Assembly: GCF_003610915.1 (NCBI RefSeq)
Contig: NZ_NSDJ01000001.1
Location: 2,666,001-2,730,000 of the forward strand
Length of the DNA: 64,000 bases
Direction: 5' to 3'
Source: Rahnella variigena
GTDB taxonomy: Bacteria; Pseudomonadota; Gammaproteobacteria; Enterobacterales; Enterobacteriaceae
Shown: one piece after another, positions 54,231 through 56,122 of the stretch
Position numbering within the stretch: the first letter of the stretch is position 1
Layout of the letters: every line of letters starts with the position of its first letter
Made by a program: the position numbers and the translations under genes
Notes under the pieces: generated by a model
Told to the model about the DNA's origin: nothing
The model's input: the letters and a program-made list of their open reading frames with translations, nothing else
Database searches by the model: none

Positions 54231-55316
54231 ATGAAGATATTAGTGACAGGCGGTGCCGGATTCATTGGGTCTGCGGTAGTTCGACATATTATAAATAATA
54301 CTCAAGATAGCGTGATTAACGTGGATAAACTGACCTACGCAGGTAATCTTGAGTCTGTTTCCATGATCGCTCAAAATGATCGTTATGCTTTCGTCCAGGC
54401 TGATATCTGCAATAAAGAGGCAATTGATCAGATTTTTGCATTGCACCAACCTGATGCCGTTATGCATCTGGCTGCCGAAAGTCATGTTGACCGTTCAATT
54501 ACGGGGCCGGCTGAATTTATTGAAACCAATATTGTAGGGACTTATACCTTACTTGAAGCGACGCGTGCTTATTGGTCACAGCTGACGGGCAATAAAAAAG
54601 AGGCATTTCGTTTTCATCATATCTCCACCGATGAAGTTTATGGAGACTTGCCTCATCCGGATGAGTGGAATGCTGAGGAAAAACTTCCTCTGTTTACTGA
54701 AAAAACGCCTTACGCACCAAGTAGCCCTTATTCCGCATCGAAGGCATCAAGCGACCATCTGGTTCGCGCCTGGCAGCGCACGTACGGCCTCCCTTGCATT
54801 GTCACCAACTGTTCTAACAATTACGGGCCGTATCATTTCCCGGAGAAACTCATTCCTTTAGTGATCTTAAATGCTTTAGAAGGAAAGAGTTTGCCGATTT
54901 ACGGTAAGGGCGATCAGATTCGCGACTGGTTATATGTAGAGGATCATGCTCGCGCGCTTTATACCGTGGTGACTAACGGCGAAGTTGGCGAGACATATAA
55001 TATCGGAGGACATAATGAGAAGAAAAACTTCGATGTGGTTCTGACTATTTGTGATCTGCTGGATGAACTGGTTCCTAAAGAAAAATCCTATCGCGAACAG
55101 ATCACGTATGTGACTGACCGCCCGGGTCATGACCGTCGTTATGCGATTGATGCAGAGAAAATTAATCATGCACTTGGCTGGAAACCGGTCGAAACCTTTG
55201 AAAGCGGTATCCGCAAAACTGTTCAGTGGTACTTAGATAATCAGTTGTGGGTGAACAACGTAAAAAGCGGAGCCTACAAGACCTGGGTTGAGCAGAATTA
55301 TGGAGAGCGCAAATAA
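54231..55316 (+). CDS. rmlB: dTDP-glucose 4,6-dehydratase
   Basis: The second step of dTDP-L-rhamnose synthesis. The 361-residue extended SDR has the NAD motif ILVTGGAGFIGSAVVRHI (residues 3-20) and the substrate stretch HLAAESHVDRSI. The catalytic HISTDEVYGD has Thr-Asp-Glu, and YSASKASSDHLVRAW carries the Tyr-Lys pair. The last stop base is shared with the rmlD start (AATAATG), so the two are coupled. Confidence 0.97.
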   Translation: MKILVTGGAGFIGSAVVRHIINNTQDSVINVDKLTYAGNLESVSMIAQNDRYAFVQADICNKEAIDQIFALHQPDAVMHLAAESHVDRSITGPAEFIETNIVGTYTLLEATRAYWSQLTGNKKEAFRFHHISTDEVYGDLPHPDEWNAEEKLPLFTEKTPYAPSSPYSASKASSDHLVRAWQRTYGLPCIVTNCSNNYGPYHFPEKLIPLVILNALEGKSLPIYGKGDQIRDWLYVEDHARALYTVVTNGEVGETYNIGGHNEKKNFDVVLTICDLLDELVPKEKSYREQITYVTDRPGHDRRYAIDAEKINHALGWKPVETFESGIRKTVQWYLDNQLWVNNVKSGAYKTWVEQNYGERK

Positions 55317-56122
55317 TGAATATTCTTCTGTTCGGTAAAACGGGTCAGGTAGGCTGGGAATTACAGCGAGCACTCGCACCGTTGGGAAAGGTTATTGCGC
55401 TTGACGTACATACGCAAGAATATTGCGGAGATTTCAGTAATCCTGAAGGCGTTGCAGAAACAGTCCGCCGTATTAAACCTGATGTGATTGTCAACGCTGC
55501 TGCCATCGGCGCTTGGTTAGTCCATTATTCCACAGATTACGTTTTTCCTGGTGATGGCGTAACCCCATGGTCTGAGGATGATGCAACCGGGCCGTTAAAT
55601 ACGTACGGTGAGACGAAACTTGCCGGAGAAGTGGCCGTGCAGAAATATTGCCCGAAACATCTGATTTTTCGCACAAGTTGGGTGTATGCCGGTAAAGGCA
55701 ACAACTTTGCTAAGACTATGCTTCGACTTGCTAAAGACAGAGAAGAACTGTCAATCATCAATGATCAGTTTGGCGCACCTACAGGTGCAGAACTGCTTGC
55801 CGATTGTACTGCTCATGCAATCAGAACAGCACTTAGCAAGCCCGAAGTCGCCGGTCTTTACCATCTGGTAGCTTCAGGTTCAACAACCTGGTTTGACTAC
55901 GCCAATTTGGTTTTCGCTGAAGCTAAGAGTAACGACTTTAAACTGGCCATAAAGAAAACGCTACCTGTTGCCACAAGCGCGTATCCAACACCCGCACGTC
56001 GCCCAAATAACTCCAGGCTCGATAACCGTAAATTCCAGGACACCTTTAATTTAACCTTGCCATCCTGGGATATCGGCGTTAAACGCATGCTTGCAGAGTT
56101 ATTCACACCTTCAGGCCTATAA
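55316..56122 (+). CDS. rmlD: dTDP-4-dehydrorhamnose reductase with internal 31-residue deletion
   Basis: The last step of dTDP-L-rhamnose synthesis (NADPH-dependent reduction). The protein is 268 residues; the usual length is about 299. Similarity to RmlD is continuous on both sides of residues 63/64, but VIVNAAA runs straight into IGAWLVHYSTDYVF, so the conserved block beginning HTAVDKAE and ending before VGAW in Escherichia is gone, in frame. Catalytic Thr73, Tyr97 and Lys101 (Thr104, Tyr128, Lys132 in the normal numbering) remain, and the N-terminal GKTGQVGWEL is intact. Loss of a strand and helix next to the cofactor pocket should harm folding or activity. It is coupled to rmlB and followed by rmlA. 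Confidence 0.9.
   Translation: MNILLFGKTGQVGWELQRALAPLGKVIALDVHTQEYCGDFSNPEGVAETVRRIKPDVIVNAAAIGAWLVHYSTDYVFPGDGVTPWSEDDATGPLNTYGETKLAGEVAVQKYCPKHLIFRTSWVYAGKGNNFAKTMLRLAKDREELSIINDQFGAPTGAELLADCTAHAIRTALSKPEVAGLYHLVASGSTTWFDYANLVFAEAKSNDFKLAIKKTLPVATSAYPTPARRPNNSRLDNRKFQDTFNLTLPSWDIGVKRMLAELFTPSGL

What the first reader, a model, noticed from the sequence alone, without database searches (positions are those of the whole stretch)
55316..56122. rmlD carries a 31-residue in-frame deletion next to the cofactor pocket
The reading frame is intact and all three catalytic residues remain, but a conserved block is missing exactly between AAA63 and IGAW64. Because the frame survived and the flanking rml genes look normal, the deletion may be recent, perhaps by slippage between GCTGCTGCC-like repeats. 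If real, dTDP-L-rhamnose cannot be made here unless another RmlD exists, which would change the O-antigen. Two WbbL-like transferases in the same operon would then lack a donor.
Basis: partly seen in the sequence, partly recalled or inferred. Interest (0 to 1): 0.7.

Follow-up and report, generated by a model that had tools for sequence, protein, structure and literature searches.

The report
Rhamnose-pathway gene with internal deletion
The only gene found in this bacterium for the last step of making the sugar donor dTDP-L-rhamnose has lost an internal block that its close relatives keep, so the enzyme is probably dead and the cell's outer sugar coat may be altered: an ordinary, probably recent loss-of-function mutation.

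Summary
Confirmed: the ORF at 55316-56122 is an rmlD (dTDP-4-dehydrorhamnose reductase) lacking 31 residues (93 bp, in frame) after Ala63 of the 299-residue enzyme. All 119 other homologues listed keep the block; the closest differs at 2 of 268 shared residues. The block holds cofactor/substrate-pocket residues Thr65, Val67 and Leu80 and the helices between beta-4 and beta-5; models agree (intact relative 1.3 A from Salmonella RmlD, shortened 7.6 A). The junction is a 9-bp repeat, present twice with one mismatch in the nearest genome, fitting slipped replication. No other RmlD was found in the genome. Of 80 family genomes with a strong RmlD match (of 392 sampled), only this one shows such a gap. 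Best reading: a recent, probably null rmlD allele in a Rahnella-type O-antigen cluster, like the rfbD mutations known to alter LPS in Salmonella. Activity, LPS and assembly were not testable. 'Two WbbL-like transferases' is weakly supported. Replacement by a rare downstream dehydrogenase is possible but unlikely. Low interest.

The parts
55316..56122 (+). rmlD with 93-bp in-frame internal deletion (268 aa instead of 299)
55496..55504 (+). deletion junction: a single GCTGCTGCC where relative G009 has two copies (one mismatch between them) 93 bp apart
54231..55316 (+). rmlB, dTDP-glucose 4,6-dehydratase, intact; its stop codon shares one base with the rmlD start
   Evidence: PRK10084, 748 bits, cut-off 649
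56171..57049 (+). rmlA, glucose-1-phosphate thymidylyltransferase, intact
   Evidence: PRK15480, 621.1 bits, cut-off 588
57053..57592 (+). rmlC, dTDP-4-dehydrorhamnose 3,5-epimerase, intact
   Evidence: TIGR01221, 271.6 bits, cut-off 155.75
53836..56435 (+). approximate tract similar to relative G009 (22 of 26 100-bp bins at 95-100%, four at 81-93%); the 18 flanking bins are at 65-85%: probable recombination tract holding rmlB, rmlD and the first part of rmlA
   Evidence: dS per gene
53136..54173 (+). WecA-family UDP-GlcNAc:undecaprenyl-phosphate transferase inside the cluster
   Evidence: TIGR02380, 451.1 bits, cut-off 326.05
60749..61507 (+). family 2 glycosyltransferase, weak match to a rhamnosyltransferase model
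58900..59745 (+). family 2 glycosyltransferase, substrate unknown
61524..62771 (+). flippase (Polysacc_synt family), O-antigen Wzx-like by position (inferred)
   Evidence: PF01943, 157 bits
52793..52831 (+). JUMPstart element ahead of the O-antigen operon

Best explanation
A recent loss-of-function allele of rmlD. Replication probably slipped between two near-identical 9-bp repeats, one at each end of the beta-4/beta-5 connection, and 93 bp (one repeat copy and the 84 bp between the copies) were lost in frame (inferred from the junction). The protein keeps its catalytic triad but lacks part of the NAD(P)H and substrate pockets and the helices that let the parallel strands beta-4 and beta-5 lie side by side, so it should not fold into an active reductase (inferred). 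With no other RmlD found in the genome (shown within the two searches), the pathway should stop at dTDP-4-keto-L-rhamnose, and an O-unit that needs L-rhamnose would be missing or incomplete (inferred). Selection for loss of an LPS phage receptor is a plausible reason, but drift in culture would do as well (nothing here tests either).
For: 119 of 119 other listed homologues keep the block; nearest allele P0008 differs at 2 of 268 shared residues. Within the block T65, V67 and L80 stand in 119 of 119 and N81 in 118 of 119 (column counts; residue letters checked). The review PMC9415975 (passages seen) gives Thr65 as contacting the cofactor diphosphate and, with Val67, lining the substrate pocket, and Leu80 in the adenine pocket. 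Models: intact relative P0017 pLDDT 90.0, pTM 0.88, 1.3 A and TM 0.97 to 1kbz; shortened protein 78.2, 0.72, 7.6 A and TM 0.80. Missing block = helices 67-72 and 74-94 of the intact model. Repeat GCAGCTGCC/GCTGCTGCC at nt 181 and 274 of the G009 gene; 29 of 208,335 9-mer pairs 15-299 bp apart in that gene match with at most one mismatch. No second RmlD: one match to P0001 at E up to 0.001; with model TIGR01214 the best row outside this gene is 41.5 bits, which is rmlB (cut-off 224). In Salmonella an rfbD stop mutation broke LPS and gave phage resistance, and 16 of 25 resistant clones had rfbD mutations (PMC11227202; abstract and one results section seen).
Against: No enzyme or LPS data. The frame is kept and the rest of the gene shows purifying selection against G009 (dN/dS 0.092; 6 nonsynonymous, 19 synonymous changes), which fits recency but would also fit a working short protein. 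The short allele is recorded on 2 contigs; if the second is an independent strain, it is not merely a culture accident. The family score still passes the curated cut-off. AlphaFold does not measure stability or activity. About 22 such repeat pairs are expected in this gene by chance (29 found), so repeats of this kind are not rare; only the coincidence with both deletion ends is telling.
Confidence: 0.85

Rival explanations
1. Assembly or consensus error: the 93 bp are present in the organism.
For: No reads are held; the gap lies between repeats; none of the 119 other listed proteins shows it.
Against: 9-bp repeats are, by general knowledge, too short to collapse an assembly; the genome is in 2 contigs at 100% estimated completeness; the junction is clean and in frame; the short protein is recorded on 2 contigs, which may or may not be copies of one record.
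Confidence: 0.06
2. The reductase step was taken over by the other dehydrogenase-family gene of the cluster, just outside the window (64303-65223), which would turn the shared intermediate into another 6-deoxyhexose such as 6-deoxy-L-talose, and rmlD decayed because it was no longer needed.
For: The gene lies in the same cluster before gnd and has a weak RmlD-model match (26.9 bits, cut-off 224.05). Clusters with rmlABC plus tll are described (PMC6124807, passages seen). It is rare: 1 of 392 family genomes at E up to 1e-40 (the own) and 2 of 394 order genomes at E up to 1e-30 (own, and one at 31% identity), with only up to 5 candidates scored per genome.
Against: Its E. coli homologue (44% identical) sits in clusters with rfbB, rfbA, a 3,4-ketoisomerase and an aminotransferase, without an annotated rmlC or rmlD, in the two regions read of 8 records found, so the RmlC product is an unlikely substrate. 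The 31% relative in G690 lies near rmlA, rmlC and a 293-aa rmlD frame. A close relative (P0122, 81%) and an intact RmlD (P0017) both name a longest contig of 19374 bases, which suggests they coexist; not verified. The deletion looks too recent for long decay.
Confidence: 0.05
3. The shortened protein is still an active or re-purposed reductase.
For: Frame, catalytic residues and Mg-site residues kept; low dN/dS in the rest; family score over the cut-off.
Against: Pocket residues and core helices are lost; the model superposes poorly on RmlD while the intact control superposes well; none of the 119 other listed homologues shares the form.
Confidence: 0.03

Closest known systems
RmlD/RfbD, dTDP-4-dehydrorhamnose reductase (Salmonella enterica, PDB 1kbz)
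   Same: Homologous over the whole remaining length, catalytic Thr/Tyr/Lys and Mg-site Glu residues, same rml gene cluster
   Different: Lacks 31 residues holding Thr65, Val67, Leu80, Asn81 and the helices between beta-4 and beta-5
Loss-of-function rfbD mutations giving altered LPS and phage resistance in Salmonella (PMC11227202, abstract and one section seen)
   Same: Damaged rmlD/rfbD in an O-antigen cluster
   Different: There stop, frameshift and substitution mutations in phage-selected clones; here an in-frame deletion of unknown cause and untested phenotype
rmlABC + tll clusters for dTDP-6-deoxy-L-talose (Aeromonas hydrophila, PMC6124807; Tll, WbiB and Tle described in PMC11549994; passages seen)
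   Same: rmlABC without an apparently working rmlD, plus a second dehydrogenase-family gene
   Different: The local gene is not shown to be Tll or Tle; its E. coli homologue occurs without rmlC; the rmlD damage is fresh

Membership tests
Functional RmlD (dTDP-4-dehydrorhamnose reductase) | Sequence family score above curated cut-off | tested here: met
   PRK09987 492.6 bits (cut-off 308), TIGR01214 266.2 (224.05), but in two stretches
Functional RmlD (dTDP-4-dehydrorhamnose reductase) | Catalytic Thr104, Tyr128, Lys132 | tested here: met
   T73, Y97, K101; triad named in PMC4832382 passages
Functional RmlD (dTDP-4-dehydrorhamnose reductase) | Mg-site residues Glu15, Glu190, Glu292 of the Salmonella-type dimer | tested here: met
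   E15, E159, E261; residues named in PMC4832382. Not required in all RmlD: that paper describes monomeric ones
Functional RmlD (dTDP-4-dehydrorhamnose reductase) | Cofactor and substrate pocket residues Thr65, Val67, Leu80 | tested here: not met
   All three lie in the missing block; roles from PMC9415975 passages
Functional RmlD (dTDP-4-dehydrorhamnose reductase) | Complete Rossmann fold with helix between beta-4 and beta-5 | tested here: not met
   Residues of helices 67-72 and 74-94 absent; model 7.6 A from 1kbz against 1.3 A for the intact control; predicted models only
Functional RmlD (dTDP-4-dehydrorhamnose reductase) | Reduces dTDP-4-keto-L-rhamnose | not testable with these tools
   needs an enzyme assay
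Tll-type replacement by the downstream dehydrogenase | Relatives found together with rmlABC and without rmlD | tested here: inconclusive
   Two E. coli regions read (of 8 records) hold the homologue with rfbB and rfbA but no annotated rmlC or rmlD; a distant (31%) relative lies about 7 kb from rmlC and an rmlD. Neither shows the Tll pattern, but only three contexts were read

The most novel reading that the evidence does not exclude
The rmlD loss is part of a switch of donor sugar: rmlABC now feed the rare epimerase/dehydratase-family gene before gnd, so the cluster makes a different 6-deoxyhexose instead of L-rhamnose and the glycosyltransferases use it.
Probability: 0.05. Interest if true: 0.45.

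Novelty: new member of a known kind. Interest (0 to 1): 0.2.

Why it matters
If right, the strain's O-antigen may be absent or altered although the cluster would be annotated as a complete rmlBDAC operon: the family score passes the cut-off, so annotation by score alone would call it a normal reductase. That matters for predicting serotype or phage range from sequence. It says nothing new about rhamnose biosynthesis.

Tried and rejected
Second RmlD elsewhere in the genome: searched by protein (3 candidates scored, 1 match) and by model TIGR01214 at E up to 1 (14 rows). Two of the 14 rows are the two pieces of this gene, one is rmlB, one is the downstream dehydrogenase; the other ten were not identified further and lie far below the cut-off (at most 34.9 bits against 224). 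Genus-wide short form: a DNA search across the junction matched in one piece only in the own genome; G004, G005, G006 and G009 match in two pieces and the other 9 of 14 genomes not at all. Replacement by the downstream dehydrogenase: pursued and judged unlikely. Literature: no paper with both 'Rahnella' and 'rmlD' in the held library; a search for Rahnella O-polysaccharide terms held 601 papers with at least two of four terms, and none of the 15 shown mentions Rahnella. Papers used were seen as passages (PMC9415975, PMC4832382, PMC6124807, PMC11549994) or abstract and one section (PMC11227202); PMC7198725 and PMC12608077 were seen as passages and add nothing decisive. PHROG and PDB-sequence searches of glycosyltransferases gave no donor specificity: two generic phage glycosyltransferase matches for 59751-60752, no matches for the other genes asked.

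One search mixed gapped and ungapped records: its catalytic-residue lines and its residue labels are wrong and were redone; its column counts are numbered on the ungapped protein and are used.

Full report
What is there. The ORF at 55316-56122 encodes 268 residues and follows rmlB, whose stop codon shares one base with its start; rmlA and rmlC follow, and all three neighbours pass their family cut-offs. It matches RmlD models above cut-off, but in two stretches, and matches Salmonella RmlD (1kbz) likewise in two pieces. In the search of 5.8 billion proteins, 7999 candidates were scored (a capped number) and 120 listed, one being the query itself. I aligned all 119 others: each carries a 31-residue block absent here, and the nearest, P0008, differs at 2 of the 268 shared residues. 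In the genus sample 8 of 14 genomes have an RmlD match: the own one, five at 77-96% identity over the C-terminal part, and two at 36 and 43%; 6 have none. The five close ones have 900-bp genes against 807 bp here, with one gap of 93 bp. In a sample of 392 family genomes, 80 hold a match at E up to 1e-60; the own genome's match starts at residue 92 of the intact query, the other 79 start at residue 1 or 2 and run to residue 275 or beyond, one of them (G220) with an internal stop. That listing would not show small internal gaps, and a gene broken into two weak pieces could fall below the limit.

Organism. The genus is inferred to be Rahnella: contigs of G009 (202077 bases) and G004 (1134684 bases) have the lengths of the contigs given for P0023 (Rahnella sp. 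FC061912-K) and P0034 (Rahnella bruchi). The species of the window is not known to me.

How it arose. The relative G009 has GCAGCTGCC at nt 181 and GCTGCTGCC at nt 274 of rmlD, 93 bp apart; the window has a single GCTGCTGCC at 55496-55504. Of 208,335 pairs of 9-mers 15-299 bp apart in the G009 gene, 29 match with at most one mismatch (22 expected by chance), so a deletion with random ends would meet such a repeat about 1.4 times in ten thousand, somewhat more often given the ambiguity of the ends. The deletion is young: the gene differs from G009 by 6 nonsynonymous and 19 synonymous changes (dN/dS 0.092), and an intact allele is closer still in protein. For rmlB the figures are 3 and 24 (0.033); the numbers are too small to tell the two genes apart.

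A recombination tract. From about 53836 to 56435, 22 of 26 100-bp bins resemble G009 at 95-100% and four at 81-93% (two of these around the wecA-rmlB junction), while all 18 bins outside, from 53136 and to 57535, lie at 65-85%. Synonymous divergence agrees: 0.11 for rmlB and rmlD, 1.04 for the wecA-type gene, 0.80 for rmlA as a whole. So this stretch was probably exchanged between lineages. The deletion is younger than the split of the two copies; its order relative to the exchange is not shown.

What is lost. The missing residues include Thr65, Val67 and Leu80 (119 of 119 listed homologues) and Asn81 (118 of 119) (column counts; letters checked). A review gives Thr65 as a contact of the cofactor diphosphate, Thr65 and Val67 as walls of the substrate pocket, and Leu80 as part of the adenine pocket (PMC9415975, passages). 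The Streptococcus RmlD paper shows an Asn78 beside the catalytic residues (PMC4832382, passages); that it corresponds to Asn81 is my inference. The catalytic Thr, Tyr, Lys and the three Mg-site Glu remain. In the model of an intact relative the block is helices 67-72 and 74-94, between strands 57-60 and 98-104. Joining these strands by a few residues should not let them lie parallel side by side, so I infer misfolding. The models agree: intact pLDDT 90.0 and 1.3 A from 1kbz, shortened 78.2 and 7.6 A. Such models do not measure stability or activity.

Consequences. No second RmlD was found in the genome, searched by protein and by family model (best row outside this gene 41.5 bits, rmlB, cut-off 224). 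If the enzyme is dead, dTDP-L-rhamnose should not be made and any O-unit needing it would not be completed. Whether the O-unit needs it is not shown: of the glycosyltransferases, only 60749-61507 has a weak rhamnosyltransferase match (21 bits, cut-off 200.55), while 58900-59745 has only a general GT2 match. In Salmonella, an rfbD stop mutation damaged LPS and gave phage resistance, and 16 of 25 resistant clones carried rfbD changes (PMC11227202; abstract and one section). Phage selection is thus a plausible cause, but nothing here tests it.

The rival that another gene took over. Just outside the window, at 64303-65223, lies an epimerase/dehydratase-family gene (L094:1303-2223). It is rare: found in 1 of 392 family genomes (the own) at E up to 1e-40 and 2 of 394 order genomes at E up to 1e-30, the second at 31% identity; at most 5 candidates per genome were scored. 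[quoted passage not shown] But the E. coli homologue lies in clusters with rfbB, rfbA, a ketoisomerase and an aminotransferase, without an annotated rmlC or rmlD (2 regions read of 8 records found), which speaks against the RmlC product as its substrate. The distant relative in G690 lies near rmlA, rmlC and an rmlD. A close relative of the gene and an intact RmlD both name a longest contig of 19374 bases, which hints that the two coexist; I could not fetch that contig. I give this rival 5%.

Verdict. It is one more probable loss-of-function allele of a gene in a variable locus, notable mainly because scoring against the family models alone would call it a normal reductase.

Noticed in passing
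window 53836-56435: Tract with 22 of 26 100-bp bins at 95-100% identity to relative G009 and all 18 flanking bins at 65-85%: probable recombination of rmlB-rmlD and part of rmlA between lineages.
   Followed up: partly
L094:1303-2223 (window numbering 64303-65223, outside the window): Rare epimerase/dehydratase-family gene before gnd; best solved relative by sequence is a UDP-glucose 4-epimerase (84 bits), E. coli homologue in clusters annotated with O70-family flippase and polymerase.
   Followed up: partly
window 53136-54173: A WecA-family gene lies inside the O-antigen cluster, with counterparts beside rmlB in G004, G005, G006 and G009.
   Followed up: partly
window 52793-52831: JUMPstart element upstream of the cluster.
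   Followed up: no
L098 (G005) 5403-6302; G220:C48:56834-57691; protein P0093: Other possibly damaged rmlD alleles: a stop near the usual end in G005, an internal stop in G220, and a 6-residue gap over the segment of the catalytic lysine in P0093.
   Followed up: no
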